A DNA stretch of 34,624 bases from a virus (IMGVR_UViG_3300025138_012176:1-34624), one strand, 5' to 3'; positions 2,401 to 29,040 are shown, counted from the first letter of the stretch. The notes: a model not told the origin generated them from the sequence alone. Translations and numbers: made by a program.

Positions 2401-2540
2401 GCGCGACCGCACATGTGGTTGCGACAATTGCAGGCGTGCCGAGGGTTGGCGCGGATCGGCGCGCCTGCTTCGACGGACCACTTTCCTTCATGCCGCCTTC
2501 ACATACCACCGTAAACCTACGAAAATGCGCAGGATTTCGA

Positions 2541-2569
2541 TTGAACGCGCTGAATTGCTCGGCTAGCGT
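2541..2569 (+). promoter_or_regulatory. Weak sigma70-type promoter candidate for the defence operon
   Basis: TTGAAC at 2541-2546 and TAGCGT at 2564-2569 are separated by 17 bases and lie about 65 bases before the WYL gene. Each hexamer matches only three or four consensus positions. The placement fits an operon promoter that the WYL protein could repress, but no clear operator palindrome was found. Confidence 0.25.
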
Positions 2570-2634
2570 GACAAGGCGCACAGAAATTGGGTGTGCATAG
2601 TTAACGTGCGGATCGGCAAGGCCGGGGGAACGCA

Positions 2635-3495
2635 GTGGAAAACGACAAGGTGGAACTTCGCTGGGGAGTCGAGCAACGGCTCGAGTTCATCGAATTCCGC
2701 CTGTTTTGGGAGGGGCATGTGAACCGTAGCGATTTGATGGAGCAGTTCGGGGTATCGGTGAACCAGGCGTCCACCGATCTGAACCGCTATATCGGCTTCG
2801 CCCCGGCCAACATGGTCTACGACAAGAGTGCACGGACCTATGTTCCTGGCCCGGACTATTCCCCGCAGTTCCTGAAGCCTGACGCCAGTCGTTACCTCGC
2901 ACAGCTGCGGTCTTTGGCTGATGGCATCATGGACAGCGACGACACTTGGATTGCTGAACTGCCTTCATATGATGCTGCGCCAACGCCGGTGCGTGGGGTG
3001 AACCCCACGACCCTGCGCTCCGTGGTCGGGGCAATCCGAAACAACGAAGCACTTGAAGTGAAGTACCAGTCCCTCTCACGCCCAGAGCCCATTTGGAGAT
3101 GGATCGCGCCTCATGCCATAGGGTTCGACGGGTTCCGGTGGCACACTCGGGCGTTTTGCCAGACGGACGAGGTCTTCAAGGATTTTCTCCTATCCCGCAT
3201 CATTGAGACTCGCGAAACCAAGGCAAGCGAAGTAACCGATGCAGCCGATGCAGACTGGCAAGAACGTGTCACGCTTGAGATCGGCCCCCACCCCGAACTG
3301 TCGGATACACAGAAACAGGTCATTGCGCTGGACTACGGGATGCAGGGTGGCACGGCAAAAATTTCCGTGCGGCGCGCATTGGTTTACTACTCTCTCAAAC
3401 GGCTCGGGCTCGACACTGATCCAGCTGCGCGGCAACCACAGGATCAGCAGATCGTTCTTCTAAATCGCGAGGTCCTCGATGAAAATCATCGATAA
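2635..3495 (+). CDS. HTH-WYL transcriptional regulator (CapW/BrxR-like)
   Basis: A 286-residue regulator. Residues about 26-58 form a DeoR-like winged helix-turn-helix (VNRSDLMEQFGVSVNQAS). Residues about 125-200 form a WYL domain, recognised by PHAIGFDGFRWHTRAFC and FKDFLLSRII. The C-terminal 80 residues fit the WCX-type dimerisation extension of BrxR/CapW proteins. Members of this family repress phage-defence operons and are thought to sense nucleic acid or nucleotide ligands. The start is a GTG at 2635 preceded by GGGGGAA. The gene overlaps the helicase by 17 bases and is the first in the operon, the classic place for such a repressor. Autorepression is inferred from family and position; it could instead be an activator. 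Confidence 0.85.
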   Translation: MENDKVELRWGVEQRLEFIEFRLFWEGHVNRSDLMEQFGVSVNQASTDLNRYIGFAPANMVYDKSARTYVPGPDYSPQFLKPDASRYLAQLRSLADGIMDSDDTWIAELPSYDAAPTPVRGVNPTTLRSVVGAIRNNEALEVKYQSLSRPEPIWRWIAPHAIGFDGFRWHTRAFCQTDEVFKDFLLSRIIETRETKASEVTDAADADWQERVTLEIGPHPELSDTQKQVIALDYGMQGGTAKISVRRALVYYSLKRLGLDTDPAARQPQDQQIVLLNREVLDENHR

Positions 3496-6400
3496 CACCT
3501 CTCAGCTTCTTGGTGACGACCTCAAGGACACAATGTCTCGCGGATCGCGTCTCAAAATCGCCGCGTCATGTTTCTCCATTTATGCATTCGAGGCGTTGAA
3601 AGCAGAGCTATCGAAGGTGGACAGCCTGCAGTTCATATTCACTTCACCAACCTTTGTACCAACCGAAGTAACCGATCGCCTACGAAAAGAACGGCGTGAA
3701 TTTTTCATCCCAAAGGCGCGCCGTGAAAGCGGCCTTTATGGAACCGAGTTTGAAATTCAGCTTCGCAATAAGTTGACGCAACGAGCGGTAGCCCGCGAAT
3801 GTGCGGCCTGGATCCGCAAGAAGGCGAAGTTCAAATCGAATACCTCCAAGGCGCCCATGCAGCAATTCATGCATGTCGAAAGCTCTGCTGAAGGCGTCGC
3901 CTACATGCCCATCAGCGGTTTCACAGCAGTCGATCTTGGCTACCAAAAGGGCGATGCTGTTTCCAACTTTGTGACGAAGTTTGACGACCCAAGTCACGCG
4001 CAGATGTATCTTCAACTTTTTAATCAGATCTGGGTAGACTCAGAGAAGGTCAAAGACGTCACGGACGCGATCTGTGATCATATTGAGTCCGTCTATCAGG
4101 AGAATTCACCCGAGCGGATCTACTTCATGATGCTTTACAATATCTTCCAGGATTTTCTGGAAGATATCGACGAAGACGTACTGCCAAATGATCTGACGGG
4201 CTATCAGGACAGCCTTGTCTGGAACAAGTTGTTCAACTTCCAGAAGGATGCAGCAACTGGGATCATCAACAAGCTGGAGACATACAACGGCTGCATTCTG
4301 GCGGACAGCGTTGGCTTGGGGAAAACGTTCACAGCTCTCGCTGTCGTAAAGTATTATGAGCTTCGCAACCGTGCTGTCTTGGTGCTTTGTCCAAAAAAAC
4401 TCGCCGACAACTGGCGGAACTACAACACCAATCTGACGACGAACATTTTTGCAGAGGATCGGTTCAACTATGATGTCCTCTGCCACACGGACCTGTCGAG
4501 GACTTCGGGCGAGTCATTCGGGATCCCGCTAAACCGGATAAATTGGGGGAATTACGATCTCGTTGTGATCGACGAATCCCATAACTTCCGCAACAACGAC
4601 GTCTACAAGGATCGCGAGACCCGCTACCAGAAGCTGATGAACAAGGTCATCCGCGCTGGTGTGAAGACCAAGGTCCTCATGTTGTCGGCCACGCCTGTAA
4701 ACAACCGTTTCACCGATCTCCGCAACCAGCTTGCCCTCGCATATGAAGGCCAGTCTGAAGGCCTAAGCCGTAACTTGAAGACCGATACGAGCGTCGAAGA
4801 GATTTTCAGGCGAGCCCAGAAAGCCTTCAACACCTGGTCGCTACTGCCCCCGGACGAACGAAACGCTGCGTCGATTCTCAAGGCGCTTGATTTCGACTTT
4901 TTCGAGCTTCTCGACGCTGTCACGATTGCCCGCTCGCGCAAGCATATCGAGACCTTCTACGACACCAAGGACATCGGTAAATTCCCCCAACGCCGGAAAC
5001 CATTGTCTTACCATTGCCCTATCACCCATCGTGACGATGTGATGGAGCTGAACGAAATCTTCGAACAGCTCTCGGTCCTCAAGCTGTCCGTTTACGCACC
5101 CATTAGCTACATCCTTCCAAGCCGCCTTCGGAAGTACGAAGAAATCTATGACACCCAAGTCGAAGGGGGGCGTGGCAAGCTGCGTCAGGCTGACCGCGAG
5201 CGCAGTCTGCAAGCCTTGATGACGACCAACCTGCTCAAGCGCTTGGAAAGCTCGGTTGAAGCGTTCCGGCTTACTCTGCGCGCCCTCGCTGCAAACATAT
5301 CACGGACGCTAACAGCGATCGGCGAATTCGAGCGATCCGGCGGCACGCAAAGCGTCAGTGATTACCTGGCCGATGTCGAAACGCTGGACGCGGAAGATGA
5401 CGAACTTGAGGGCCTCAATGAATTCACTGTCGGCAAGAAGGTTCAGATCAGTCTCGGAGATATGGACCTACCGTCTTGGAAAAACGATCTTCAGGCCGAT
5501 CTTATTCTGATCGACGATCTGGTCGCTTCGATGGATAAGGTCCGACCTGAGGACGATGCCAAGCTCCAGCACTTGCAAGACGTTATTACCCGCAAAGTTG
5601 GCGCGCCAATTAACCCGGGCAACAAGAAAGTGCTCATCTTTACGGCGTTCGCCGACACGGCAAATTACCTCTTTGCAAACCTCGCCCCTTTCGCGAAGGA
5701 TCTCGGGCTGCACACCGGAAAGGTGACTGGCTCGGATTCACCGAAGACCACACTCAAGAAGAGCTATGATTTCCAGGGCGTCTTAACGCTGTTTTCGCCC
5801 CGCTCGAAGGAAAAGGACATTATCCTGCCGGACGAGCCAGCAGAGATCGACATTCTGATTGGCACGGACTGTATCTCCGAAGGTCAAAACCTCCAGGACT
5901 GCGACTATCTGATCAACTACGACATCCACTGGAACCCGGTGCGCATCATTCAGCGATACGGTCGTATTGACCGCATCGGGTCACCTAATTCGCAGATCCA
6001 GCTGGTAAACTATTGGCCCGACATTTCGCTCGACGAATACATCAACCTCAAGGAGCGTGTCGAAAACCGGATGGTGATCGCCGACATGGTGGGTACCGGT
6101 GACGACAACGTCCTGACGGCCAAGAGTGGCGACATCGCCTACCGCAAGGATCAGCTCAAACGCCTGCAGGAAGAGGTGATCGATCTTGAAGACGTCAAGA
6201 CCGGCGTGTCGATCACCGACCTTGGCCTGAACGACTTCCGAATGGATCTGCTGAACTACGCCAAGCAGCACGGCGAGCTCGACAACCTGCCGAACGGCAT
6301 GCATGCCGTGGTACCGGCGCAGGCCCAAATGGGGCTCCGTCCCGGCGTAATCTTCGCGTTGAAAAACATCCACGATACCGTGAACATCAACCAGCAGAAC

Positions 6401-6751
6401 CGGCTCCACCCCTTCTATCTGGTCTACATCGCCGACGATGGCGAAATCATCGCTGACCATACCGAGGTCAAGCGCCTGCTCGACCTGATCCGGACCAGCT
6501 GCAAGGGCCGTGGGGTCCCTGTGCCCGACGTCTGCCGCACGTTCAACGAGCGCACCGAGGACGGCCGCAAGATGGAGCATTATTCCGGTCTGCTAAGCGC
6601 GGCAATCCGCTCCATGATCGAGGTGAAAGAAGAAAAGGATCTCGACAGCCTGTTCAGCGGTGGCCGCACAACCGCGTTGACCCACACAATCGCCGGGCTT
6701 GATGACTTCGAACTGATCGGCTTCCTGGTGATCGAGGACAGCGTCGCATGA
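3479..6751 (+). CDS. SNF2-type helicase with degenerate phospholipase-D-like N-terminus
   Basis: A 1090-residue superfamily 2 ATPase of the SNF2/HepA branch. Residues 1-200 look like a phospholipase-D-like domain (MHVESS... ISGFTAVDLGY... FNQIWVD), but the HxK(x)4D signature is reduced to HVE with no Lys or Asp, so nuclease activity is unlikely. Helicase motifs are intact: FNFQKDAA (253-260), Walker A DSVGLGKT (276-283), DESH (365-368), SATP (403-406) and QRYGRIDRIGS (from 825). A long acidic insert lies between the two RecA lobes. It should translocate on DNA or remodel protein-DNA complexes using ATP. The neighbouring DUF4391 gene overlaps by 4 bases, suggesting a complex. DISARM DrmD-like helicases are an alternative comparison, but the rest of DISARM is absent. 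Confidence 0.85.
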   Translation: MKIIDNTSQLLGDDLKDTMSRGSRLKIAASCFSIYAFEALKAELSKVDSLQFIFTSPTFVPTEVTDRLRKERREFFIPKARRESGLYGTEFEIQLRNKLTQRAVARECAAWIRKKAKFKSNTSKAPMQQFMHVESSAEGVAYMPISGFTAVDLGYQKGDAVSNFVTKFDDPSHAQMYLQLFNQIWVDSEKVKDVTDAICDHIESVYQENSPERIYFMMLYNIFQDFLEDIDEDVLPNDLTGYQDSLVWNKLFNFQKDAATGIINKLETYNGCILADSVGLGKTFTALAVVKYYELRNRAVLVLCPKKLADNWRNYNTNLTTNIFAEDRFNYDVLCHTDLSRTSGESFGIPLNRINWGNYDLVVIDESHNFRNNDVYKDRETRYQKLMNKVIRAGVKTKVLMLSATPVNNRFTDLRNQLALAYEGQSEGLSRNLKTDTSVEEIFRRAQKAFNTWSLLPPDERNAASILKALDFDFFELLDAVTIARSRKHIETFYDTKDIGKFPQRRKPLSYHCPITHRDDVMELNEIFEQLSVLKLSVYAPISYILPSRLRKYEEIYDTQVEGGRGKLRQADRERSLQALMTTNLLKRLESSVEAFRLTLRALAANISRTLTAIGEFERSGGTQSVSDYLADVETLDAEDDELEGLNEFTVGKKVQISLGDMDLPSWKNDLQADLILIDDLVASMDKVRPEDDAKLQHLQDVITRKVGAPINPGNKKVLIFTAFADTANYLFANLAPFAKDLGLHTGKVTGSDSPKTTLKKSYDFQGVLTLFSPRSKEKDIILPDEPAEIDILIGTDCISEGQNLQDCDYLINYDIHWNPVRIIQRYGRIDRIGSPNSQIQLVNYWPDISLDEYINLKERVENRMVIADMVGTGDDNVLTAKSGDIAYRKDQLKRLQEEVIDLEDVKTGVSITDLGLNDFRMDLLNYAKQHGELDNLPNGMHAVVPAQAQMGLRPGVIFALKNIHDTVNINQQNRLHPFYLVYIADDGEIIADHTEVKRLLDLIRTSCKGRGVPVPDVCRTFNERTEDGRKMEHYSGLLSAAIRSMIEVKEEKDLDSLFSGGRTTALTHTIAGLDDFELIGFLVIEDSVA

Positions 6752-7455
6752 CAGGCTTCTTCGACTATCCCAAAAGCGCTGCGTTCGGCCGGGTTCTGCC
6801 CAAGAACAAGATCTACGAACACGCAGGCGCGAACACCGCCCTGAAGGATCTGTTCGTGCGTGAGGTCGATCAGATCGTCTGGCGCTACAAGCTCGCGCCC
6901 GAAACCATCAATTTGAGCGCTACCAAATCGGTCGCCGAAATTCAGATCTTCGACATATCGCTGAAAACCGGCAAGCTGGACGAGGCCGTTCTGCGCGCCA
7001 TCGACAAGGCCATTCCTTTTCCCCTGATCTTCGAGTTGAGCCATGACGGCAAACGCAGGGCCATGGCGGCCTACAAGCGGCCCAGCGAGGCCGACAGCGC
7101 GAAGTGGGTGATCAGCGAGTATTTCGCCACCGACTGGGTGGCCGATACCGCCGCCAGGTCGCCCCTACCGGTCGCGCTTAATCTCGGTGGGCTTTACGAC
7201 GCACTTCTGTCCGGTTTGATGCCACAACAGGTTCAGGCGGCACCCGGACAGGACACCGAAGACATTCAGGCCCGCGTCGACCGGATGGAGGCGATCCGCG
7301 CCAAAACGCGAGATGTCGAACGGGTCAAGGCGCGGTTGGGGCGCGAGAAGCAATTCAACAAGCGCGTGGCAATCAACGCAGAGCTGCGCGCGGCGAAATT
7401 GGAATTGGAACGGCTGACCGGGGCGACGGCCTCGGTGACCGCGCCGAGTGAATAA
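6748..7455 (+). CDS. DUF4391 domain protein
   Basis: A 235-residue protein matching the DUF4391 family as I know it: an N-terminal LPKNKIYEH segment, then LKDLFVREVDQIVWRYKLAPETINL (split by my reading into LPKNK and WRYKL anchors), then a mixed alpha/beta core to about residue 150. The last 60 residues are a charged, probably coiled-coil tail (about 175-225, rich in Glu, Arg and Lys). The biochemical role is unknown. DUF4391 genes tend to sit between a helicase and a type III-like methyltransferase, as here, so an adaptor or nuclease-associated role in the defence complex is plausible but unproven. ATG at 6748 overlaps the helicase stop (ATGA). Confidence 0.8.
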   Translation: MTGFFDYPKSAAFGRVLPKNKIYEHAGANTALKDLFVREVDQIVWRYKLAPETINLSATKSVAEIQIFDISLKTGKLDEAVLRAIDKAIPFPLIFELSHDGKRRAMAAYKRPSEADSAKWVISEYFATDWVADTAARSPLPVALNLGGLYDALLSGLMPQQVQAAPGQDTEDIQARVDRMEAIRAKTRDVERVKARLGREKQFNKRVAINAELRAAKLELERLTGATASVTAPSE

Positions 7456-7468
7456 GAGGACGATGAGC

Positions 7469-9331
7469 ATGGAAAAAATGAAGCTGCACAGCCCCGACTT
7501 GAGCCAGGACAACATCGCCAAGATTCGGGCTCTGTTTCCGGGCTGCGTGACCGAAGCCGCCGACGAGAACGGCAAAATTCGGCTAGCAGTAGATTTCGAC
7601 CAGTTGCGGCAGGAACTGAGCGATCATCTCATCGACGGGCGGCAAGAGCGATTTCAATTAGACTGGCCAGGAAAACGGGAGGCTTTAGCGATAGCAAATG
7701 CGCCAATTGCAAAGACCTTGCGCCCCTGCAAGGAAGAGAGTGTGGAATTTGACACCACGGGTAACATTTTTATTGAGGGCGACAATCTAGATGCCCTGAA
7801 GCTTCTTCAAGAGAATTACCTTGGGGAGATCCAGCTCATATATATTGATCCACCCTATAACACTGGAAATGACTTTATATATGAGGACGATTTTTCACAG
7901 GGCTCCGATGTATACCTGCAGCGTTCGAACCAGACTGATGAAGACGGGAACCGTCTCGTGGCAAATACGTCGGCCAATGGCCGGTTCCATTCGGATTGGC
8001 TCTCATTAATGTATCCACGCCTGCGAATGGCAAGAAATTTGCTTTCCGACGATGGGGCAATTTTTATCAATATTGACGACTCTGAATTGGGAAATCTCAA
8101 GAAGATTTGCGATGAAATATTTGGTGAAAATAACTTCATTGCTAATGTTGCGTGGAAACATACGCAGCAGAGCAAAAATGACGAAAGATACTTTGCGCGG
8201 GTCTACAACTCGCTCCTTGTTTATCGAAAGTCTGACTCACTGGAAAAATTCCGCCTTCCCAGAACAGAAGCCGACAACAAGAATTACTCCAACCCGGATA
8301 ATGACGCAAAGGGTCTTTGGCGTGCAGGTGATGTGCGGAGTCCAAATTATCGGCGTACACTTTGCTTTGATATATTGACCCCCTCGGGTAAGAAAATTTC
8401 TCCACCTGACAATGGGTGGCGCTGGTCTGAGGAAACGGTCAAAGGCAAAATCAAGACTGGAGAGATCGTATTTAACGCGGATGAGACCAAAATTGTTAGA
8501 AAAATATATCTAGCCAATCAAGAAGGGCGTACGCCTGAGAACCTTTGGGATGGCGAAGTTGCCGGAACGTCTCGACAGGCAAATTCTGAACTTAAAGATT
8601 TGTTCGATGGCGTTGCAGTTTTCGACACGCCAAAACCCACCGCGCTAATAAAAAGAATAGCGAAGCTATTCTTTGATAGTTCAGATTATATCGCCCTAGA
8701 TTTCTTTGCTGGGTCCGGAACTACTGCGGCTGCATTAATGCAGCTCAATGCGGAGGATGGTGGGCGGCGTAGGGTGTTTACAGTACAGTTTCCCGAGCCG
8801 TGCTCCGAAGGATCTGAACCCCAGAAGGCCGGATATCAGACGATTGCTGAAATTTGCAAAGCGCGTATCCGCCGCGTCGGGGCTAAGATTTTGGAGAGCG
8901 ACTGCCACCCCGACTGGAACAAGGATGTCGGCTTCCGTGTCCTGAAGATTGACACATCGAACATGGAGGACGTTTATTACCGTCCTGACGAGGTCACGCA
9001 AGCTGACCTGCTCACCGCCGTCGACAACGTCAAACCGGACCGCACGGCCGAAGACCTGCTCTTCCAGGTGCTGGTCGACTGGGGCGTCGACCTGACGCTG
9101 CCCATTCGCCGCGAGACCGTGCAGGGCAAGATCGTGTTCTTTGTCGACGACAACGCGCTGGTCGCCTGTGTCGAGACCGGGATCACCGAGGACCTGGTGA
9201 AGGAACTGGCCGGGCATGAGCCGCTGCGCGTCGTGTTCCGCGACAACGGCTTCGTCTCGGATGCGGTGAAGATCAACGTCGAACAGATCTTCCGCCAGCT
9301 CTCCCCCGCCACCGACGTCAAAACGATTTAA
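7469..9331 (+). CDS. Type III restriction-modification DNA methyltransferase, Mod1
   Basis: A 620-residue beta-class N6-adenine or N4-cytosine methyltransferase, close to the usual length of type III Mod subunits. The catalytic motif DPPYNTG lies at residues 127-133 and the AdoMet motif FAGSGTT at 413-419, in the beta-class order with the target-recognition segment between them. It should methylate one strand of a short site and guide Res. I prefer ATG 7469, with AAGAGGA eight bases upstream and an N-terminus (MEKMKLHSPDL) matching Mod2; GTG 7448 and ATG 7463 are alternatives. The middle of the gene (about 7640-8870) is visibly AT-richer than its 3' end, which is nearly identical to Mod2 and suggests recombination. 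Confidence 0.9.
   Translation: MEKMKLHSPDLSQDNIAKIRALFPGCVTEAADENGKIRLAVDFDQLRQELSDHLIDGRQERFQLDWPGKREALAIANAPIAKTLRPCKEESVEFDTTGNIFIEGDNLDALKLLQENYLGEIQLIYIDPPYNTGNDFIYEDDFSQGSDVYLQRSNQTDEDGNRLVANTSANGRFHSDWLSLMYPRLRMARNLLSDDGAIFINIDDSELGNLKKICDEIFGENNFIANVAWKHTQQSKNDERYFARVYNSLLVYRKSDSLEKFRLPRTEADNKNYSNPDNDAKGLWRAGDVRSPNYRRTLCFDILTPSGKKISPPDNGWRWSEETVKGKIKTGEIVFNADETKIVRKIYLANQEGRTPENLWDGEVAGTSRQANSELKDLFDGVAVFDTPKPTALIKRIAKLFFDSSDYIALDFFAGSGTTAAALMQLNAEDGGRRRVFTVQFPEPCSEGSEPQKAGYQTIAEICKARIRRVGAKILESDCHPDWNKDVGFRVLKIDTSNMEDVYYRPDEVTQADLLTAVDNVKPDRTAEDLLFQVLVDWGVDLTLPIRRETVQGKIVFFVDDNALVACVETGITEDLVKELAGHEPLRVVFRDNGFVSDAVKINVEQIFRQLSPATDVKTI
8915..9303 (+). repeat. 3' segment of mod1, directly repeated in mod2
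   Basis: This segment aligns without gaps to 11344-11732 at a constant offset of 2429 bases. Differences are few and mostly silent. One uninterrupted identical run is 9111-9165 versus 11540-11594 (55 bases), and another of similar length follows near 9225-9290. It covers the Mod C-terminal region and could serve as a homologous-recombination site. Confidence 0.9.
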
Positions 9332-9498
9332 CCAAGAAGATTGAGAGTGTGCAAAGCCACACGACACCACCCGAAACAAGCGGCGACAAGCCCCCAGGCG
9401 CTTCCCAATCGGCGCTGACACGGTTCAGAAGTACGAGAAGAACACGACACCAAACGAAGTGCATGACGAGCAAGAACACCAAAACAGAAAGCGACCCG

Positions 9499-9831
9499 AT
9501 GAACATAGATTTCTTTAAAGACGCGACCGACGTAGTGCTTGAAGTCGAAGTAAACCCTGATGCTGCAGGTCGGTTTGAGTCACGATATCGAGCCGTAACC
9601 GGTTCGAACCCTAATCTTGGAGAGGGTTACCAACATCAACCGAACAAATGGGGTCTAGAAGTCCGGGTTTATTTCAATAGTGAGGTGGATATGTCCGATG
9701 AGTTCACCTCTATTGACGTTTACGTTGAGCAAGGTGACCGGCCCTATCGAAAGCGCTGGGTCTATAGACTGAATGACCGTGAATTTTTTTGGTCGCTCGT
9801 TGAGGCCGGATATCGACTTGGCGAAAACTAA
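9499..9831 (+). CDS. Small protein of unknown function between the two mod genes
   Basis: A 110-residue acidic protein, starting MNIDFFKD, with no signal peptide, membrane segment or recognised domain. The predicted strand-rich pattern (VVLEVEV, LEVRVYF, SIDVYVEQG) and many aromatic residues suggest a compact beta-rich fold. ATG 9499 is my choice because the residues before it look non-coding in character. ATG 9463 in the same frame, behind a GAAG sequence, would add 12 residues. The 167 bases between mod1 and this gene hold nothing clear. Base composition is AT-richer than the helicase and Res genes, like the variable parts of the mods, so it may have travelled with one of them. A modulator or immunity role is speculation. 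Confidence 0.6.
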   Translation: MNIDFFKDATDVVLEVEVNPDAAGRFESRYRAVTGSNPNLGEGYQHQPNKWGLEVRVYFNSEVDMSDEFTSIDVYVEQGDRPYRKRWVYRLNDREFFWSLVEAGYRLGEN

Positions 9832-9867
9832 TACTCTGACAACGTAAGGCGAACCGAGGGTGAAAAC

Positions 9868-11760
9868 GTGACGATAAAAAAACTTGAAATGAAAACCCCT
9901 GAATTGTCACGGGACATCAAAACTCAACTTGCTACGTTGCTGCCGGAACTTGTGACGGAAGTGAGAAACGAGGCTGGCGAACTTGAGCAAGTCATTGATT
10001 TTGAACTACTGAAGCAGATCCTTGATGGACAAGCCACAGAGGGTATGCGTGAGCGGTACCATCTAAACTGGCCTGGGAAAGCAGCCGCACTCATTGAAGC
10101 CAATACATCCTTGGAAAAAACCGTTCGTCCATTCGAAGCCGATAGTCTGCATTTCCAGAGCACCAAGAACTTGTTCATCGAAGGAGACAATCTAGACGGG
10201 CTTAAGCTAATCCGCGAGAGCTACCTGGGGAAAGTTGATATGATTTATATTGACCCCCCCTACAACACAGGAAGTGACCTAATTTACAACGATCAATATA
10301 AGTTGGGCGCGGACGAATATCTCGAAAAATCGGGGCAAATTGATGGAATGGGGGGTAAGCTGGTAGCGAACTCTCAAACCAACGGTCGCTTTCATTCTGA
10401 CTGGCTGTCGATGATGTATCCTCGGCTACGAATAGCCCGCCAACTCCTGTCTGATCTTGGGCTCATTTTTATTTCAATCGATGACAATGAGCGCGCTAAC
10501 CTACAGAAGCTTTGCGAAGAGGTCTTTGGGGCCAGCAATTTTTTGGGTTGTTTTGTTTGGAAGCGTCGTAGCGGCGCCATGGATGCTGTGACAAACCTCA
10601 GTGAAGATCATGAGTACGTTTTGGTCTACTCGAAGTCGCAGGCCACCCTCAAAGGTGTTGAGAGAACATTTGAAAAGTATAAAAACCCAGACAACGACCC
10701 TCGGGGCGCCTGGATCTCAGATAACCTCAGCGCAGGAAAACCGGGGGGCGACACATATTATCCGATAACGGACCCAGACACCGGGAACGAGTTTCTTCCT
10801 CCGAAGGGAAGATACTGGCCCTATAGCCGTCAAACTATGGCGCAAAAAGTTTCTGAAGGCCGTGTCATATTTCCTAAAGGCCCGACTGGTACTCCGATGC
10901 TGAAGCGCTTTGCGTCTGAAGCAATGAAACCCACAATACCGGTATCGTCTTGGATTGAACGCCCCACTGGCGGCGGTGGGCAAAGTACTATCGTTTCTCC
11001 AATGAATAGCTCTGCAACGACGGCGTTGAAAAATCTTTTCGGAGGTAAGCTGTTTTCATTTCCCAAGCCGGTCGAGCTAGTAAGAGCGCTTATTAAACAA
11101 GGAGCAGCGAAAGACGCACTAATTTTGGACTTTTTTGCGGGCTCGGGAACGACTGCTCAAGCAGTTTTCGAATGCAATGCAGCTGACGGTGGGAACCGTC
11201 AGTGCATTCTGATTCAGTTGCCCGAGGCAATCGATGAAGGATCAGACGCATTTAAAGATGGTTACGAGACTATTGCGGACTTCTCTAAGGAACGCATACG
11301 CAGAGCTGGTGCCATGGTCCTTGAAGGTGAATGTCATTCCGGCTGGAACAAGGACGTAGGCTTCCGCGTCCTGAAGATCGACACGTCGAACATGCGGGAC
11401 GTCTATTATCGTCCTGACGAAGTCAAACAGGCCGACCTGCTCACCGCCGTCGACAACGTCAAACCGGACCGAACGGCCGAAGACTTGCTCTTCCAGGTGC
11501 TGGTGGACTGGGGCGTCGACCTGACGCTCCCCATCCGGCGCGAGACCGTGCAGGGCAAGATCGTGTTCTTTGTCGACGACAACGCGCTGGTCGCTTGTTT
11601 TGACACTGGCATCACCGAGGATCTGGTGAAGGAGCTGGCCGGGCATGAACCGCTGCGCGTCGTGTTCCGCGACAACGGCTTCGTCTCGGATGCGGTGAAG
11701 ATCAACGTCGAACAGATCTTTCGTCAAATTTCTGTCACGACAGAAGTAAAGGCGATCTAA
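9868..11760 (+). CDS. Type III restriction-modification DNA methyltransferase, Mod2
   Basis: A 630-residue beta-class methyltransferase paralogous to Mod1. DPPYNTG is at residues 129-135 and FAGSGTT at 423-429, both intact, so the enzyme should be active. The N-terminal 170 residues are recognisably similar to Mod1 (FIEGDNLDGLKL, RFHSDWLSMMYPRLR). The target-recognition segment between about residues 220 and 400 differs strongly, implying a different DNA site. The last 140 residues are nearly identical to Mod1. Translation starts at a GTG (9868) behind GAGGGTG. The stop abuts the next ATG (TAAATG). It probably competes or alternates with Mod1 for the single Res. Confidence 0.9.
   Translation: MTIKKLEMKTPELSRDIKTQLATLLPELVTEVRNEAGELEQVIDFELLKQILDGQATEGMRERYHLNWPGKAAALIEANTSLEKTVRPFEADSLHFQSTKNLFIEGDNLDGLKLIRESYLGKVDMIYIDPPYNTGSDLIYNDQYKLGADEYLEKSGQIDGMGGKLVANSQTNGRFHSDWLSMMYPRLRIARQLLSDLGLIFISIDDNERANLQKLCEEVFGASNFLGCFVWKRRSGAMDAVTNLSEDHEYVLVYSKSQATLKGVERTFEKYKNPDNDPRGAWISDNLSAGKPGGDTYYPITDPDTGNEFLPPKGRYWPYSRQTMAQKVSEGRVIFPKGPTGTPMLKRFASEAMKPTIPVSSWIERPTGGGGQSTIVSPMNSSATTALKNLFGGKLFSFPKPVELVRALIKQGAAKDALILDFFAGSGTTAQAVFECNAADGGNRQCILIQLPEAIDEGSDAFKDGYETIADFSKERIRRAGAMVLEGECHSGWNKDVGFRVLKIDTSNMRDVYYRPDEVKQADLLTAVDNVKPDRTAEDLLFQVLVDWGVDLTLPIRRETVQGKIVFFVDDNALVACFDTGITEDLVKELAGHEPLRVVFRDNGFVSDAVKINVEQIFRQISVTTEVKAI
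11344..11732 (+). repeat. 3' segment of mod2, direct repeat of mod1 3' segment
   Basis: This is the second copy of the repeat described at 8915-9303, in the same orientation and reading frame. Homologous exchange between the copies would delete the small gene and swap the Mod specificity segment that remains attached to the shared C-terminus. Confidence 0.9.
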
Positions 11761-12435
11761 ATGCCAACAATCACGGAAATTCGACATGTCGTTAAGTCTG
11801 AACGTTATTGGATCTTTGTAGACGGCCAATACTGTACGAGCGTAAGAGCTAGAACTTTTCCAGCGCTAGCACTTGCGGTTGGGCAGGAGATTTCTTGCGA
11901 TAAGGTCATCGATCTCGAAAAGTTTCATTGGAAGCATAAATATGGCGAGCAAGCCTGGGAGAAGGAGAAAATTCGAATTGATCGTGTGACGAACATTATT
12001 GAAACAAAGTTTCCGAGACTCAAAGTGTCTGTTGTCGGTTTTGGGGCTGATTCGAACGCATTCTTGGCAGAACATCCAGATGAGTCTGGAAAGCCCGATC
12101 TTTTGATAGAGGGACGAGACTCCGGCCGAAAATACTGCATGCTTGAGGTGTCGGGAACGGAAATTATGCGCGGCGATAGCTATTGGGTGCGTCCAGACAA
12201 ATTAAGTTACGCACAGAAACACCCAACAGAAGATGTGTGGGTCTGCCTTCATTACAGCCAGCCATCTGAAAAGCTCGTTTTCATTAGACCAAAACCAGAA
12301 ACCGAATACAGGCCGTCTGAGAAGGAAATACGAGGCTCAATCGAGCATTATGTTGAATTTTCAGAACATTCAGACGAGCACAAGAATGCCGATGACTTCT
12401 TCGACTACCTGCTTTCGAAGAGAGATCTAAAATGA
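11761..12435 (+). CDS. Unknown protein with RecX-N-like domain and PD-(D/E)XK-like core
   Basis: A 224-residue protein that I do not recognise as a named family. Residues about 1-60 resemble the N-terminal domain of RecX ([30 protein letters not shown]). Residues about 95-175 show a nuclease-fold-like pattern: KPDLLIE, then MLEVSGTE, then [13 protein letters not shown]. In a PD-(D/E)XK reading, Asp of PD and Glu of LEVSG are present, but the catalytic Lys is replaced by Ser, so cleavage activity is doubtful. It starts immediately after the mod2 stop and ends 16 bases before res, inside the operon. A DNA-binding or specificity helper for Mod2/Res is the simplest guess. Domain calls are by eye and need profile searches. 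Confidence 0.6.
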
Positions 12436-12451
12436 GGGAGATTTCGGAAAG

Positions 12452-15400
12452 ATGAAGCTTAAATTTAAAGTCCAGCCCTATCAGACAAGCGCTGTCGATT
12501 CTGTTGTGGACTGTTTTGCCGGACAGCCGATGGCCAGTGGCGTCAACTATCGGATCGACCCGGGCCGTAAGGCACAGACCAGCGCGTTCGAGGAAGGCTT
12601 CAAGAATGCCGATATCGCGCTGAGTGAGGCACAGGTGCTGGCGAACATCCAGGATGTGCAGCGCCGCCAGAACCTTCCGTTCAGCCAAAGCCTCACCGAC
12701 TTCACCGTCGTTAACGGGCGTGGCGAGCGAACACCGGCGCCAACGACCTACACCCGCGACGCGCTGGCCGCGAGCCGCTACCACCTCGACGTCGAGATGG
12801 AAACCGGGACCGGCAAGACCTATTGCTACATCAAGACCATCTTCGAGATGAACAAGCGCTTCGGCTGGTCGAAGTTCATCATCATGGTGCCCAGCATCGC
12901 CATCCGCGAAGGCGTCTACAAATCGCTTCAGATCACAGCCGACCATTTCACCGAAAGCTACGGCAAGAAGGCGCGGTTCTTCATCTACAACTCAAAGCGT
13001 CTGCATGAGCTGGAAAGCTTCTCGTCGGACGCTGGCATCAACGTAATGGTCATCAACATTCAGGCCTTTGCCGCCCGTGGTGCGGACAACCGTCGCATCT
13101 ACGACGAGCTCGACGACTTCCAGTCCCGCCGCCCCATCGACGTAATTGCCAGCAACCGGCCGATCCTGATCCTGGACGAACCGCAAAAAATGCAGGGAAA
13201 CGCGACGATGGAAGCGTTGCCGAAGTTCAAGCCGCTGATGGTCTTGCGCTATTCAGCCACTCACAGGACACAGCACAACAGGATCCACCGCTTGGACGCA
13301 TTGGACGCCTACAACCAAAAGCTTGTGAAGAAGATCGCCGTACGTGGCATTCAAACGCGCGGTCTGGCCGGAACCAATGCCTACCTTTACCTCGAAGGGA
13401 TCGACATCTCGAAGAAAGCGCCGGTTGCTCGGATCGAGATGGAAGTGAAGCTGAAAACCGGCGAAATCAAACGGCAACTTCGGCGGCTGGAATTTCGCGA
13501 CGACCTGTTCACGCTTTCCGGGGAGCTGGATCAGTACAAGGGCTTCACGATCTCTCAGATCGACTACAACCACGACACGGTCGAATTCACCAACGGCGAG
13601 GTTCTTACGGCTGGCGAGGCCACAGGCGACGTGTCAGAGCGCGACATCCGGCGGATCCAGATCCGCGAGACGATCAAAGCGCATTTCGACAAGGAAAAGC
13701 AGCTCTTCGCTCAAGGGATCAAGATCCTTTCGCTGATTTTCATCGATGAGGTGGTTAAGTACCGCGACTACGGTCAGGCGGACGAAAATGGAGAGTACGC
13801 CCGCGTCTTTGAAGAGGAATACGAGCTGTTGAAGGAAGAGTATCTTTCAGAGCTGGCAATCGACAACGAGGCCTACCGAACGTATCTCGCGGCGATTGAC
13901 GTGACGAAGACTCACAACGGCTATTTCTCAATCGACAAGAAAACCAAACAGTTGAAGGATCCCGCAGTCGGTGCGCGGGCCGTCGATTCAGATGATGTCG
14001 ACGCTTATGATCTCATCCTGAAGGACAAGGAGAGCTTGCTAAGCCTTCCCGGTCCAACCGACAGCGCCGATCAACGGGCAAAAAGAGAGGTTCGCTTCAT
14101 ATTCTCTCACTCTGCGCTGCGGGAGGGGTGGGACAACCCAAATGTCTTCGTCATGTGCATGTTGAAGCACAGCGACAATACGATCTCTCGACGCCAGGAA
14201 GTGGGTCGGGGATTGCGGCTATCCGTAAACCAGCAAGGTGACAGAATGGACCACCCGGCGGTGGTTCATGACATTAATGTTCTTACGGTGGTCGCGAGCG
14301 AAAGCTACAAGGACTTCGTGGGCGGGCTGCAGAAGGAAATTTCGGAGACATTGTCCTCGCGGCCCCGGCAGGCCACCGAAGCCTACTTTACAGGCAAGAC
14401 CATCACCACCGATGCGGGCCCAATTGAAATCACGGCTGCAATGGCGAAGCAGGTCTACCGGTATCTCGTTAAGAATGATTACACGGACAACGCTGATCAA
14501 ATTTCTGAAGACTATCACCAGGCTAAGGAAGCAGGCACGCTGGTCGAGTTGCCAGATGAACTTAAGCCGCATGCCGAGCAGATATTCCAGCTCATTGACA
14601 GTGTGTTCAGCGATGCACAGCTGCCCAAAGTGGACGACGGGCGAAAACCAAAGACGAACCCGCTCAATGCCAACTTCGAGAAGAAGGAATTCCAGGAGCT
14701 CTGGTCCCGGATCAATCGGAAAGCAGTCTATCGCGTGGACTTCGACTCAGCTGAGTTAGTTCGAAAATGTGTCAGCGCCCTCGACAGCCAGCTCCGCGTA
14801 ACACCACTTCAGTATACCGTTCAAGCAGGCGTTCAGACGGATGGGATTACCGACGACCAGTTGAAGGCTGGCGACGGTTTCGAGGTGACCGCGACTTCCA
14901 CCCAACATGGTGGCTCGGTGTACTCACGAGTGAAATATGACTTGGTTGGCAAGATCGCAGAGAATTCCCAGCTCACGCGACAGTCGACTGCCTCAATCCT
15001 TTCAGGCTTAGAGACTAGTATCTTTGCTCAGTTTCAGCAGAATCCAGAGCACTTTATCGCAGAGGCATCGCGGATTATTGCCGAGCAGAAGGCGACGATG
15101 ATTATCGAGCGTCTGAGCTATGACGAGGTCGCTGACTGCTACGACGTCGATATCTTCACCGCCAATCAGAGCGGTCAAGATTTCTCGCGCGCTAGCGCCA
15201 AGCTGAAGAACCACGTCTACGATTATGTTGTAACCGATTCTGATGTCGAAAAGCGTTTCGTGGCAGAGTTGGAAACCAGCTCAGAAGTGGTCGTATACGC
15301 CAAGCTTCCTCGTGGTTTCCTCATTCCAACGCCAGTTGGAGATTACAACCCAGATTGGGCGATCTCTTTCAAGGATGGGGGCGTGAAACATATTTATTTC

Positions 15401-15580
15401 GTGGCTGAAACCAAAGGTTCGATGTCAACGATGAAATTGCGCGAGATAGAGAAGACCAAAATCGAGTGCGCCAGAAAATTCTTTGATGAAATCAATCAGA
15501 AAATTTCACAAGATAAGGTGAAATACGAAGTCGTCACTGATTACGCAAAGTTGATGGATATCGTCGGTCGTGCAGCGTGA
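12452..15580 (+). CDS. Type III restriction enzyme Res subunit (helicase-nuclease)
   Basis: A 1042-residue SF2 helicase with a C-terminal nuclease, slightly longer than classical type III Res. Walker A is METGTGKT (116-123), motif II is DEPQK (242-246), motif III is around RYSATHR, motif V contains [11 protein letters not shown], and motif VI is [11 protein letters not shown]. The C-terminal PD-(D/E)XK nuclease shows PD at 967-968 and ETK at 986-988, so both activities look intact. With a Mod dimer it should recognise unmodified sites, translocate or slide on DNA using ATP, and cut. It follows the RecX-like gene by 16 bases and overlaps the GIY-YIG gene by 1 base. Two Mods are available for this one Res. 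Confidence 0.92.
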
Positions 15581-16527
15581 TGAAACCCCGCTCGATCAAC
15601 ATCTTCCTCCTCGACGGCGATCCGAACGGCATTCGGGTAGCGCAAATCTCGATGTCTACGATCCAGGCAATCGCCTTCCGCCGCAACCAGCTGCGCCGGG
15701 TTCGCGAGGCTTTTCCCGAGATTGAGCGGCCAGGCGTCTATATCTTGATTGGCTCCGATGACAATCAGGCGGATCAGCAACTCGCCTATATCGGTGAGTC
15801 TGAAGGTATCGGTGGTAGGCTATCCACTCACAACTCCAATGAAAGCGGGCGAGATGCCAAAGGCTTTTGGACAGACACGGTTGTCCTGATAAGCAAAGAT
15901 GAGAACCTTACCAAGAGCCATGCACGCTACGTAGAAGCATGCTTGATCCGCAGCGCTGGGAGCAATCCTCGCTGGACCCTGCCCAATACTAGAATGCCGT
16001 CCAACGATGCTGGGAAGTTACCGCTTCCTGATCGCGCGGCCATGGACGAATTTGTCGATCAGACAAAAACACTGGTCGGCGCTCTAGGCTGGGATGTGTT
16101 TCGCGAGATGCGTGGGCGTGCCCCGCAATTGACACCAATAGAAGAGAGCATGCCACAGCCTGAACCGAGCGAAAGCCCAAAGTTCTTTTTCCGTGGCGAA
16201 GGCTTTTCGGCAGAAATGGTGGTCGGCCCGTCCGGGGATTTCATCGTTCAAGCGGGGTCAAAAGCGCGGCTTCGAACCACATCCACAATCCCCAGAGGAA
16301 CCACGACTTTGCGCTCCACCCTGCTTGAAAAGGGCGTGTTCCGTGAAGACGGGAAATTTCTCCTCTTTACCAGCAACTACAGCTTTTCATCGGTTTCAGC
16401 CGCCGCTGCAGCAGTGATCGGAGCAAGCGCGAACGGCCGAATTCTTTGGAAGCTGCCCGACGGATCAACCTATGCGGATTGGGAGTCGGGTCTGAGCGAA
16501 AACGACGCTGCTGAGCCAACCAAATAG
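15580..16527 (+). CDS. GIY-YIG nuclease with C-terminal DUF4357
   Basis: A 315-residue protein. The GIY-YIG domain spans about residues 48-130 with GVY (52-54), YIG (70-72), the catalytic Arg (R80, GGRLSTHN) and the metal-binding Glu (E119, YVEACLI) all present, so it is predicted to be an active endonuclease. A DUF4357 domain follows at about 225-300 (SKARLRTTSTIPRG to GSTYADW). ATG 15580 overlaps the Res stop (TGATG); a GTG at 15577 is a possible earlier start. As the last gene of the operon it may be a second effector that cuts DNA after Res or helicase action. GIY-YIG/DUF4357 proteins are common near restriction genes, but their role is not settled to my knowledge. Confidence 0.85.
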   Translation: MKPRSINIFLLDGDPNGIRVAQISMSTIQAIAFRRNQLRRVREAFPEIERPGVYILIGSDDNQADQQLAYIGESEGIGGRLSTHNSNESGRDAKGFWTDTVVLISKDENLTKSHARYVEACLIRSAGSNPRWTLPNTRMPSNDAGKLPLPDRAAMDEFVDQTKTLVGALGWDVFREMRGRAPQLTPIEESMPQPEPSESPKFFFRGEGFSAEMVVGPSGDFIVQAGSKARLRTTSTIPRGTTTLRSTLLEKGVFREDGKFLLFTSNYSFSSVSAAAAAVIGASANGRILWKLPDGSTYADWESGLSENDAAEPTK

Positions 16528-16626
16528 GGTGGTTATGCATTCGAATCCGAAGCTCCCAATACCACGTTCGCCGTCAGGCACGTCAACGACAACACCATGA
16601 TATAAATTCAGAAACTTGGTTTGTCG

Positions 16627-16672: not shown

Positions 16673-16936
16673 CTATGGTGCCGACCAACTGCAGGCCCGC
16701 GCCTGATCTCGCATGACCGCGTAATCGCCCATCATCTCGACGACGGCCGATCCGTCCGGCAGAAGAGCGAGTTCCTCCGTCGCGCGGTTCCGAATTTCCC
16801 TACTGTATTCCACGACCGGCGGACATGCCGCCAAACCGTTCGCTTCAAAACCCGCCGTCGCGCAGCCGGTCAACCAGCTCGCCACGATCACGAGGACGGC
16901 GAACCGCCGCCTCCAGCATCCGGCGTTGGATTTCAT
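16673..16936 (-). CDS. Outer-membrane spanin lipoprotein (Rz1-like)
   Basis: An 87-residue small lipoprotein. A basic N-terminus (CWRRRF) is followed by a hydrophobic segment and a lipobox LTGC, after which the mature protein is short and periplasmic. I start at ATG 16936 because the signal sequence begins there; longer upstream extensions in this frame run antisense to nothing plausible and would bury the signal. Its 5' third overlaps the inner spanin gene in a different frame, the typical Rz/Rz1 nested arrangement. With the inner spanin it should bridge the envelope and fuse inner and outer membranes at the end of lysis. Sequence conservation of spanins is low, so the call rests on topology and context. 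Confidence 0.75.
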   Translation of the reverse strand: MKSNAGCWRRRFAVLVIVASWLTGCATAGFEANGLAACPPVVEYSREIRNRATEELALLPDGSAVVEMMGDYAVMRDQARACSWSAP

Positions 16937-17102
16937 TGGTCTTCTCCCTGATTTCAAGGCGTTCCACCAGGCGACCAACGCGCTCGCCGGAGCGCCGGAT
17001 TGAGAGCAGGAACAGAATGATGGCGAGCGCGATTGCAACGTAGCGCATGGTGGCCCGCGCCCAGGCGCTTGCCCCGACCAGTCCCAGCACAGCCGCGATC
17101 AT
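16845..17102 (-). CDS. Inner-membrane spanin (Rz-like)
   Basis: An 85-residue protein with an N-terminal hydrophobic region (residues about 1-15 and a stronger membrane segment at 20-36, YVAIALAIILFLLS) and a charged, helical periplasmic tail rich in Arg and Glu, as expected for an inner spanin. ATG 17102 overlaps the endolysin stop (ATGA); ATG 17048 would leave one membrane segment and fits Rz topology better, so the start is uncertain. The outer spanin gene overlaps its 3' end in another frame. Confidence 0.65.
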   Translation of the reverse strand: MIAAVLGLVGASAWARATMRYVAIALAIILFLLSIRRSGERVGRLVERLEIREKTNEIQRRMLEAAVRRPRDRGELVDRLRDGGF

Positions 17103-17773
17103 CTCTGCCCCCGTTTCCAGTCATCAAGGCGGGCGTAGATCGTGACCGCGATCCCCCCGAGAGCCACGGCGATGAACACCCAGCGCAACGTGTCCAGATA
17201 CGGCACGAGCGGCAGGATGGCGCTCTGGGTCTCGGTCAGGACGCTCTGCGCCACCTCGACCCCGGCTGCGGCCAGCGTCGCCGCTCCGGCAGCCCCGCCG
17301 CCCCTCATGGTGCGGCTGTCGGCCAGTACTTCGCGCGCAGGCGGGGTTTCAGCCGCGAAAGCCGTCTCCCGGACCGGGAAGCGCTCGCCCCACTGACGCG
17401 CCGGGCCGAGGTCGACATGGATGAACCCCGAGCGCGGGTAGAAGCCGAAGCCGAGGAACCCGACCTCCCGCGCCGCGGCCTCGAACGCCACCGGGTCATG
17501 GTTCGACATGGCGATGTCGAAGGCCGCACCAGCCATGTGCTTCGAGCGTGTTGCCCCACCGACCGAACGGTTGTGTTCCGGGCTTCGATAGGCCGATCGG
17601 ATGATCAGCGATTTGCCCAGCCGGTCGCGGAGCGCCTGCAGTTTATCAAGCGCGGGTTGGTTGATCAGCAGCTTGCCAGTGCCCCGGCAGGCAATTTCAG
17701 CGGGTGAGAAATTGGGCCAGCGCCAGGTGCCTCCCGGCACATCGCGCCAATGGTCGTAAAATGTCGTGGTCAT
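17099..17773 (-). CDS. M15-family peptidoglycan peptidase (endolysin) with C-terminal membrane segment
   Basis: A 224-residue protein whose first 135 residues are a Peptidase_M15 (YcbK/D-Ala-D-Ala carboxypeptidase-like) domain. Zinc and catalytic residues are visible as SKHMAGAAFD (H79, D86) and HVD (H119, D121). It should cleave peptide bonds in peptidoglycan for host lysis. There is no N-terminal signal peptide. The C-terminal 35 residues contain one clear membrane helix (about 197-214, VFIAVALGGIAVTIYA) followed by a basic tail, unusual for an endolysin. ATG 17773 is chosen over an upstream in-frame start because GGAGG lies eight bases before it. It opens the lysis cassette with the two spanins. 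Confidence 0.85.
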   Translation of the reverse strand: MTTTFYDHWRDVPGGTWRWPNFSPAEIACRGTGKLLINQPALDKLQALRDRLGKSLIIRSAYRSPEHNRSVGGATRSKHMAGAAFDIAMSNHDPVAFEAAAREVGFLGFGFYPRSGFIHVDLGPARQWGERFPVRETAFAAETPPAREVLADSRTMRGGGAAGAATLAAAGVEVAQSVLTETQSAILPLVPYLDTLRWVFIAVALGGIAVTIYARLDDWKRGQR

Positions 17774-17787
17774 GGTGTCCTCCAGAA

Positions 17788-17813
17788 ACAAAAAGACCCG
17801 CCACAAGGGCGGG
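17788..17813 (-). terminator. Intrinsic terminator between tail operon and lysis genes
   Basis: On the minus strand a 6-bp GC stem (arms at 17808-17813 and 17797-17802, 5-base loop) is followed by TCTTTTTG. This is a good rho-independent terminator lying just before the endolysin ribosome site. It would end or attenuate tail-gene transcription and lower expression of the lysis genes unless antitermination occurs. Confidence 0.7.
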
Positions 17814-17847
17814 TGCGGGTTGGCAGGTGAACTGAGGCGGAGCGCTT

Positions 17848-18138
17848 TTACGGGCCGCCGCCGAAGATCTTCAGCTTCAGGGCGATCCCGGCGAGGAGCG
17901 CCAGCATCACACCAGTGGTGATCAGATGGACGGCCGTCTGAACGGCCGTGCGCCGCACGAAGCGGATGCAGTCGAGCAGTGAACGAAGATCGCGGATGTC
18001 GAGGGCGGCGTCCTTGCCATCGATCCCGGCGTCGGCCAGGGCGCGTTTGGCACCCGCTTCGGCGGCGCGCGTCAGCATCGCCTGGAATTCAATCTCGGAC
18101 ATGCGCATGTCGCCTTGGTCGGCGCGAGGCGGCGTCAT
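17848..18138 (-). CDS. DUF6127 family phage membrane protein
   Basis: A 96-residue protein with a helical, charged N-terminal part (MSEIEFQAMLTRAAEAG, ALDIRDLRSLLDCIRFV) and one C-terminal membrane helix (about 72-90, LITTGVMLALLAGIALKLK). It matches DUF6127 from memory. ATG 18138 overlaps the stop of the fibre gene (ATGA), so I prefer it over ATG 18102. It sits directly before the lysis cassette, and with a small size and a membrane helix it is a holin candidate, though a single C-terminal helix would be atypical. Confidence 0.7.
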   Translation of the reverse strand: MTPPRADQGDMRMSEIEFQAMLTRAAEAGAKRALADAGIDGKDAALDIRDLRSLLDCIRFVRRTAVQTAVHLITTGVMLALLAGIALKLKIFGGGP

Positions 18139-22468: not shown

Positions 22469-22471
22469 GTC

Positions 22472-22690
22472 TCAGGTCTCGCTCGCGGTGCGCGCGGCGC
22501 GTTTCTCTGCCTCCGCGATCACCCGGATTGCCAGAGCGTCGCCAGTCGCGGCCAGCACGTCGGCGGGCAGCCCATCTGCGAGGAAGGCCTGCCAGTCGAG
22601 GCCATGGCGGCGGAACCACGGCCGCGCGCCCTGAAAGCAAAGCCGGGACGCGCGCAGGTCCTGCACCGTGACGATAAGATCATCGCTCAT
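22472..22690 (-). CDS. Small phage protein of unknown function
   Basis: A 72-residue protein (MSDDLIVTVQDLRASRLC...), predicted largely helical, without membrane segments. The region GARPWFRRHGLDWQAFLADG resembles small conserved proteins encoded just before tail-tip genes in related prophages. ATG 22690 overlaps the preceding stop (ATGA). Probably a tail assembly or tip accessory protein, by position only. Confidence 0.65.
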   Translation of the reverse strand: MSDDLIVTVQDLRASRLCFQGARPWFRRHGLDWQAFLADGLPADVLAATGDALAIRVIAEAEKRAARTASET

Positions 22691-22935
22691 TTCTTGCCGC
22701 CCTTCTTGCGGATCGGATCGACCTTGAGGTCCCCGGCCCAGACGACGTTCGGGCCGCGCAGCAACATGGTGCCGAAGACCACAGGGATCGGACGGCCTTC
22801 CTCGGCCGTCGGCAGGTCGAAATCATCAAGCCCGGCGGCTTTCGGGGCTTCGACCTTCGGCTTGGGCGACAGCGCATAGGAGATCGCCGTCAGCACGAGG
22901 CTGGCGACGATCTGGACGACGAAGTTCCAGACCAT
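22687..22935 (-). CDS. Small tail-tip assembly protein with N-terminal hydrophobic segment
   Basis: An 82-residue protein with a hydrophobic N-terminus (about 4-23, NFVVQIVASLVLTAISYAL), a linker, and the motif GRPIPVVFGTMLLRGPNVVWAGDL. That motif resembles the start of gpJ-like tail proteins, which commonly read IPVVYGR...GG. It may be a split-off N-terminal piece of the tail-tip protein system. Its basic tail is RKKGGKK. It is coupled to the next gene by an ATGA overlap. Confidence 0.65.
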   Translation of the reverse strand: MVWNFVVQIVASLVLTAISYALSPKPKVEAPKAAGLDDFDLPTAEEGRPIPVVFGTMLLRGPNVVWAGDLKVDPIRKKGGKK

Positions 22936-22955
22936 GGTGAGTTCTCAGATTTGAG

Positions 22956-23804: not shown

Positions 23805-23817
23805 GCGGGTACAGTGG

Positions 23818-29016: not shown

Positions 29017-29040
29017 GGTGTTCTCCTGTGGTGAGTGAGG

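What the first reader, a model, noticed from the sequence alone, without database searches (positions are those of the whole stretch)
7469..11760. Two Mod genes with different recognition segments but a nearly identical 3' end share one Res
Bases 8915-9303 and 11344-11732 align without gaps, including a 55-base identical run, while the central target-recognition parts differ and are AT-richer. This fits cassette exchange of Mod specificity by homologous recombination, giving dual or switchable methylation. Recombination would delete the small gene and leave a chimeric Mod.
Basis: partly seen in the sequence, partly recalled or inferred. Interest (0 to 1): 0.68.

Follow-up and report, generated by a model that had tools for sequence, protein, structure and literature searches.

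The report
Two Mods sharing one restriction subunit
A bacterial virus-like element carries a Type III restriction-modification locus with two different DNA-marking genes and one cutting gene; the part predicted to plug into the cutter is kept nearly identical in both by repeated gene conversion, while the recognition part is exchanged between relatives.

Summary
Two intact Type III mod genes precede one res; their last ~130 codons are 91% identical in DNA (longest run 71, not 55), while the upstream three quarters is only ~45% identical in protein. By homology to EcoP15I, the shared part is the C-terminal domain (CTD) that docks Res; the rest comprises the dimerisation domain (NTD), methylase core and recognition domain (TRD). 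The closest relative (Marimonas lutisalis) has the same two-mod layout. Its tails match each other, not their orthologues, at 23 sites, and pairing reverts to orthologous in the last 37 bases: gene conversion within each lineage. The mod1 TRD differs between the two loci (32%), mod2's does not (96%). A third relative (Res 98%) has one mod with another TRD and the same CTD. Across 65 single-mod loci CTD and NTD track Res; TRD does not. In E. coli, Res 98.6-99.7% identical goes with six TRD alleles. So TRD exchange at mod1 and two Mods per Res are supported. 'Switchable' is not: repeats are direct, homology lies downstream of the TRD, and a crossover would only delete mod2. Two methylated motifs are likely but unmeasured.

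The parts
2635..3495 (+). WYL-domain protein, likely regulator of the locus
   Evidence: Pfam WYL 3e-9; same position in L032, L084, L145, L148
3479..6751 (+). HKD(PLD)+SNF2 helicase-like ATPase, conserved upstream partner of this Type III subgroup
   Evidence: SNF2-rel_dom, Helicase_C; PADLOC HKD+Snf2 5e-126; in nearly all related loci
6748..7455 (+). DUF4391 protein
   Evidence: Pfam DUF4391 8e-60; upstream of mod in related loci
7448..9331 (+). mod1, Type III methyltransferase; start may be 7463 or 7469; variable-specificity slot
   Evidence: PADLOC MTase_III 3e-229; DPPY and FAGSGT motifs; TRD swapped relative to L032 and L087
7448..7645 (+). mod1 NTD (predicted dimerisation domain), family-typical type
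   Evidence: 30% aa to mod2 NTD, 80-85% to single-mod relatives; domain role from EcoP15I structure PMC4490356
8168..8647 (+). mod1 target recognition domain
   Evidence: 26% to mod2, 32% to L032 mod1, but 82% to distant L003
8915..9328 (+). mod1 C-terminal domain = shared tail (predicted Res docking)
   Evidence: 93% aa to mod2 tail; conversion-type sites 8947-9254, orthologous sites 9292-9328
9499..9831 (+). small gene (110 aa), function unknown, possible methyltransferase partner
   Evidence: 94% in L032; 35% homologue next to a DrmMI/IIG-like methylase on a Paracoccus plasmid
9868..11760 (+). mod2, Type III methyltransferase, GTG start; stable specificity
   Evidence: PADLOC MTase_III 5e-212; motifs intact; TRD 96% to L032 mod2, body dN/dS 0.075
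9868..10050 (+). mod2 NTD, divergent type
   Evidence: at most 44% to any other sampled Mod except L032 mod2 (90%)
10573..11080 (+). mod2 target recognition domain (approximate limits)
   Evidence: alignment to mod1 and EcoP15I domain limits; nearest other TRD is L090, 58%
11344..11757 (+). mod2 C-terminal domain = shared tail
   Evidence: its core is nearly identical to that of the single Mod of L087 (dS 0.07)
11761..12435 (+). 224-aa protein: RecX-like N-terminal stretch plus Hjc/PD-(D/E)XK-like fold (moderate-confidence model)
   Evidence: NCBIfam RecX 2e-4; AF2 mean pLDDT 68; Foldseek to Hjc 1gef E 4e-4, also RecX 3d5l; otherwise only in L032 and L090
12452..15580 (+). res, the only Type III restriction subunit of the locus
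   Evidence: PADLOC REase_III E 0; GTGKT, PDW...ETKG motifs
15577..16527 (+). GIY-YIG + DUF4357 protein downstream of res
   Evidence: Pfam; same position in L032, L085, L087, L148

Best explanation
This is a prophage-borne Type III restriction-modification locus of the helicase/DUF4391-associated subgroup with two complete Mods serving one Res. Mod1 and Mod2 each form their own homodimer through different N-terminal domains and methylate different asymmetric sites. Either dimer recruits the same Res through a common C-terminal domain, giving two specificities for one cutting engine. Homologous gene conversion between the directly repeated 3' ends keeps that docking domain alike in both genes, while the mod1 recognition segment is an exchangeable slot replaced from outside and mod2 stays constant. 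Shown: anatomy, intact motifs, tail conversion, replacement of the mod1 TRD between relatives, family-wide TRD exchange. Inferred: CTD docking (from EcoP15I), separate homodimers (from NTD divergence), two methylated motifs and restriction at both.
For: Tail 91% DNA identity, beyond a codon-usage null. In four tails (window mod1/mod2, L032 mod1/mod2) 23 sites pair within genome (8947-9254), with 1 orthologous and 3 crossed in that stretch, then 8 of 8 are orthologous at 9292-9328 (Fisher P 9e-7). Tail-core dS within genome is 0.34 and 0.19, against 0.56 between orthologues and 0.47 for the mod2 body. dN/dS is 0.05-0.11 for mod2 body, res, small and the 224-aa gene. mod1 TRD 32% and mod2 TRD 96% between window and L032. 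L087: Res 98%, same CTD, different TRD, single mod. Over 65 single-mod loci identity correlates with Res for CTD (rho 0.69) and NTD (0.59), not TRD (-0.10); permutation maxima about 0.25. E. coli: six TRD alleles with Res 98.6-99.7% identical. EcoP15I CTD contacts Res and NTD forms the dimer (PMC4490356).
Against: No methylome, expression or interaction data. CTD and NTD also track the upstream helicase (rho 0.64 and 0.58), so covariation alone does not prove docking. The two-mod, homogenised-tail form is seen in only two loci. Other tandem-mod loci (L019, L064, L070) show no tail homogenisation. L032 mod1 carries a 98-N scaffold gap in the tail, although 14 of the 23 sites lie beyond the 125-nt overlap and are linked to mod1-specific sequence.
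Confidence: 0.65

Rival explanations
1. Switchable system: recombination between the two tails reshuffles Mod specificity within a cell lineage, as inverted hsdS genes do in Type I systems.
For: Long direct repeats with runs of 71 and 56 nt; conversion does occur; different specificities exist among relatives.
Against: Repeats are direct, not inverted; shared DNA is only 3' of the TRD, so a crossover keeps TRD1 and deletes mod2; no recombinase gene seen beside the mods; no simple repeats; the expected deletion product was not found.
Confidence: 0.08
2. mod2 with the small and 224-aa genes is an inserted cargo module, as other genes are in the same mod-res slot; Mod2 acts independently, for example as a solitary methylase or with the 224-aa nuclease-like protein, and the tail likeness only reflects recombination without a docking role.
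For: mod-res and DUF4391-mod gaps hold varied cargo in many relatives; the 224-aa gene is linked to a mod2-like TRD in single-mod locus L090; single-mod is the common layout (5 two-mod of 81).
Against: Insertion alone does not explain tails that are more alike within than between genomes after the split, nor strong selection on the CTD (dN/dS 0.06), whose known role in EcoP15I is Res contact.
Confidence: 0.17
3. One Mod is non-functional or being replaced; the pair is a transient state.
For: L020 shows a frame-broken first mod in tandem, and L078 keeps a CTD-only remnant.
Against: Both mods are open with catalytic motifs; the two-mod layout persists in two lineages with mod2 body dS 0.47 and dN/dS 0.075.
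Confidence: 0.08
4. Assembly artefact: a metagenomic contig joining two loci, or tails collapsed.
For: Window is an IMG/VR record; L032 has a scaffold gap in the same repeat.
Against: The isolate L032 has the same gene order at 88% identity over 7.5 kb, and the window tails differ at 34 of 389 sites, so they are not collapsed.
Confidence: 0.02

Closest known systems
Type III RM subgroup with an upstream helicase-like ATPase (BspHIV, Eco86II; PMC8259958)
   Same: An extra helicase-like gene upstream of mod, then mod and res; reported in over 500 genomes
   Different: Those have one mod; DUF4391, the second mod, small and the 224-aa gene are not mentioned in the passages read; sequence identity to Eco86II itself was not tested here
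EcoP15I / EcoP1I
   Same: Mod domain order NTD-MTase-TRD-MTase-CTD; near-identical Res with divergent TRDs is the classic precedent
   Different: One Mod per Res; no extra helicase in the published complex
modA alleles of Neisseria and Haemophilus (PMC3311624)
   Same: Recognition domain exchanged en bloc by recombination in conserved flanks
   Different: Single mod, phase-variable by simple repeats; here no such repeats and two mods
Type I loci with duplicated hsdS and inverted repeats (PMC7394358)
   Same: More than one specificity unit for one restriction engine
   Different: Those invert and switch; here the repeats are direct and both mods look expressible

Membership tests
Type III restriction-modification | beta-class Mod with DPPY, then TRD, then FxGxGT | tested here: met
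   both mods: DPPY at 134/129, FAGSGT at 420/423; MTase_III models
Type III restriction-modification | Res with SF2 helicase and C-terminal PD-(D/E)XK nuclease | tested here: met
   GTGKT, PDW...ETKG; ResIII and RE_endonuc domains
Type III restriction-modification | asymmetric site methylated on one strand, cleavage needs two inverted sites | not testable with these tools
   no methylome or enzyme assay
Helicase-associated Type III subgroup (BspHIV/Eco86II-like) | conserved helicase-like ATPase gene upstream of mod | tested here: met
   HKD+SNF2 gene at 3479-6751, conserved with DUF4391 in related loci
Helicase-associated Type III subgroup (BspHIV/Eco86II-like) | sequence homology of the helicase to the BspHIV/Eco86II one | not tested
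   those sequences were not fetched; resemblance is by gene order as described in PMC8259958
Phasevarion (phase-variable Type III mod) | simple sequence repeat in or before mod | tested here: not met
   no such tract in 2500-16600
Switching hsdS-like system | inverted repeats around specificity genes | tested here: not met
   only direct repeats between the mods
DISARM | drmA, drmB, drmC core | tested here: not met
   the helicase hits DrmD weakly (152 bits against cut-off 610); no DrmB or DrmC among the locus proteins scanned

The most novel reading that the evidence does not exclude
A two-specificity Type III system built by division between domains: divergent dimerisation domains insulate the two Mods from each other, while a common Res-docking domain is kept interchangeable by continuing gene conversion, possibly helped by the cassette's own RecX/Hjc-like protein.
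Probability: 0.35. Interest if true: 0.62.

Novelty: new variant of a known kind. Interest (0 to 1): 0.45.

Why it matters
Type III enzymes are thought of as one Mod dimer per Res. A locus where two Mods keep one docking domain alike by gene conversion would show how a restriction engine can serve two specificities, as Type I systems do with spare hsdS genes. The family-wide pattern (fixed ends, exchanged centre) gives natural sets of recognition domains on near-identical frames, including six in E. coli, for mapping Type III recognition and for testing whether the CTD alone sets Res pairing.

Tried and rejected
Inverted-repeat or simple-repeat switching: looked for, not found. Chance or codon bias as the cause of tail likeness: rejected by simulation. 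Recent whole-gene duplication of mod with later body replacement: disfavoured, because mod2's last 36 nt are of a different type shared with L032 mod2, and the bodies are saturated at silent sites. Exact deletion product: not found in the loci retrieved. Relatives of the small and 224-aa genes in viral contigs: none; plasmids: one weak hit for small, none for the 224-aa gene. Structure of small: uninformative (pLDDT 46). Promoter and terminator scan: no better than shuffles. Literature: no paper found on two mods with one res or on gene conversion in Type III mods; the library lacks most subscription journals.

Full report
Setting. The window is a 34.6-kb IMG/VR record. Its right half is phage tail and head genes on the minus strand; its left end has two RepB/ParB-like genes. 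Between them lies a defence locus: WYL, HKD-SNF2 helicase, DUF4391, mod1, small, mod2, a 224-aa gene, res and a GIY-YIG/DUF4357 gene. In the isolate Marimonas lutisalis (L032) the same locus lies between alignable flanks on both sides.

Observation. The two 3' ends align without gaps (8915-9303 and 11344-11732) at 91.3%, with runs of 71 and 56 identical bases. A null that keeps the peptides and redraws codons gives 77% on average and runs no longer than 42 in 5000 draws. Upstream of this the genes differ throughout: NTD 30%, first methylase part 58%, TRD 26%, second methylase part 49%, against CTD 93%. So the non-shared part is the whole body, not only the centre.

What the shared part is. Mod1 matches the EcoP15I Mod in sequence. 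In EcoP15I the NTD (14-60) forms part of the dimer interface, the TRD (263-384) reads DNA, and the CTD (539-644) of ModA contacts Res (PMC4490356). The shared tail corresponds to the junction of methylase core and CTD and the CTD itself. The role of the CTD here is inferred from that structure.

Gene conversion. With the tails of window mod1 and mod2 and L032 mod1 and mod2, 23 sites between 8947 and 9254 group the two genes of each genome, one groups orthologues and three are crossed; from 9292 to 9328 all eight informative sites group orthologues (Fisher P 9e-7). Silent divergence in the tail core is 0.34 within the window and 0.19 within L032, against 0.56 between orthologues, 0.47 for the mod2 body and 0.48 for res. 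Because the two-mod layout is shared by both, the tails were homogenised after the lineages split. In L032 the mod1 tail holds a 98-N scaffold gap flanked by a 125-nt exact overlap, as expected if a repeat broke the assembly; 14 of the 23 sites lie outside the overlap on the mod1 side.

Block exchange. Between window and L032 silent divergence is 1.6-1.9 for WYL and helicase, 0.31-0.48 for small, mod2, the 224-aa gene and res, and 1.7 for GIY-YIG. The stretch from the mod1 tail to the end of res therefore has a more recent common ancestor than its flanks, with the left edge in the tail. A similar left edge appears against L087: DUF4391 and mod NTD 77%, res and beyond 96%. I read this as homologous recombination using the CTD-coding DNA as an entry point (inference).

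Recognition segments. The mod1 TRD is 32% identical between window and L032 while the mod2 TRD is 96%; by nucleotide, 8080-8838 does not align. L087, with 98% identical Res, has one mod with a mod1-type NTD (83%), another TRD (15%) and the same CTD (95%). Its tail core is nearly that of window mod2 (dS 0.07), but its last 40 bases are mod1-like. The window mod1 TRD is found at 82% in the distant locus L003, whose CTD is only 68%. Over 65 single-mod loci, identity of CTD and NTD tracks Res (rho 0.69 and 0.59) and that of TRD does not (-0.10); for pairs with Res at or above 85% the median TRD identity is 21%. CTD and NTD also track the upstream helicase, so this shows co-inheritance of the ends with the operon, not docking itself. 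In E. coli, ten genomes carry a related locus; Res is 98.6-99.7% identical in nine, and seven mods compared represent six TRD alleles (14-37% identity between alleles) with NTD 92-100% and CTD 88-99%.

How common. Of 81 loci with DUF4391, mod and res in one stretch, five have two whole or nearly whole mods (window, L032, L019, L064, L070); outside that count L020 has a frame-broken first mod, and L078 has a CTD-only remnant. Only window and L032 show homogenised tails and a divergent mod2 NTD. In a sample of 397 genomes of the Marimonas family, 13 have the tail and one has it twice; the 224-aa gene occurs in one of 385 genomes sampled in the class.

Companions. The 224-aa protein has a RecX-like start (E 2e-4), and a moderate-confidence model resembles archaeal Holliday-junction resolvase Hjc, of PD-(D/E)XK fold (E 4e-4); the usual catalytic lysine is not at the expected place (EVSG), so activity is doubtful. 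Small has a 35% relative next to a DrmMI-like methylase. The gaps before and after mod hold varied cargo across the family.

Mechanism and limits. Most likely each Mod forms its own homodimer (NTDs differ), marks its own site and borrows the single Res through the common CTD. A crossover between the tails would delete small and mod2 and leave Mod1 with the same recognition domain, so it cannot create a new specificity; new specificities come from outside by replacement within mod1. Methylation (m6A or m4C), cleavage, dimer make-up and docking were not measured.

Novelty. TRD exchange in Type III mods is known (EcoP1I/EcoP15I; modA, PMC3311624), and the helicase-associated subgroup is described (PMC8259958). 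Two mods for one res with a docking domain kept alike by gene conversion was not found in the library searched; that library is incomplete. I rate it a new variant of a known kind.

Noticed in passing
11761-12435: RecX-like N-terminus joined to an Hjc/PD-(D/E)XK-like fold, found only in window, L032 and L090, where it accompanies a mod2-like TRD.
   Followed up: partly
L102:9157-10585: WYL gene followed directly by a mod tail and res; helicase, DUF4391 and mod body are missing. Deletion or assembly join.
   Followed up: partly
L078:1806-2234: Stand-alone, N-terminally truncated mod CTD 3.5 kb upstream of the helicase, 83% to the CTD of the locus's own mod: looks like a recombination scar.
   Followed up: partly
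mod-res and DUF4391-mod gaps of many loci: Two insertion slots hold varied cargo (a recurrent ~551-aa protein family, and by eye AAA ATPases, PIN-like and Fic-like genes): possibly a defence cargo platform.
   Followed up: no
E. coli hits H29-H48 (L152, L155-L160): Related Type III locus on E. coli plasmids and one chromosome with six TRD alleles on one Res: a ready panel for mapping recognition.
   Followed up: partly
1-2253 and 16690-34624: In window, L032 and L084 the locus sits between RepB/ParB-like genes and a prophage tail module.
   Followed up: partly
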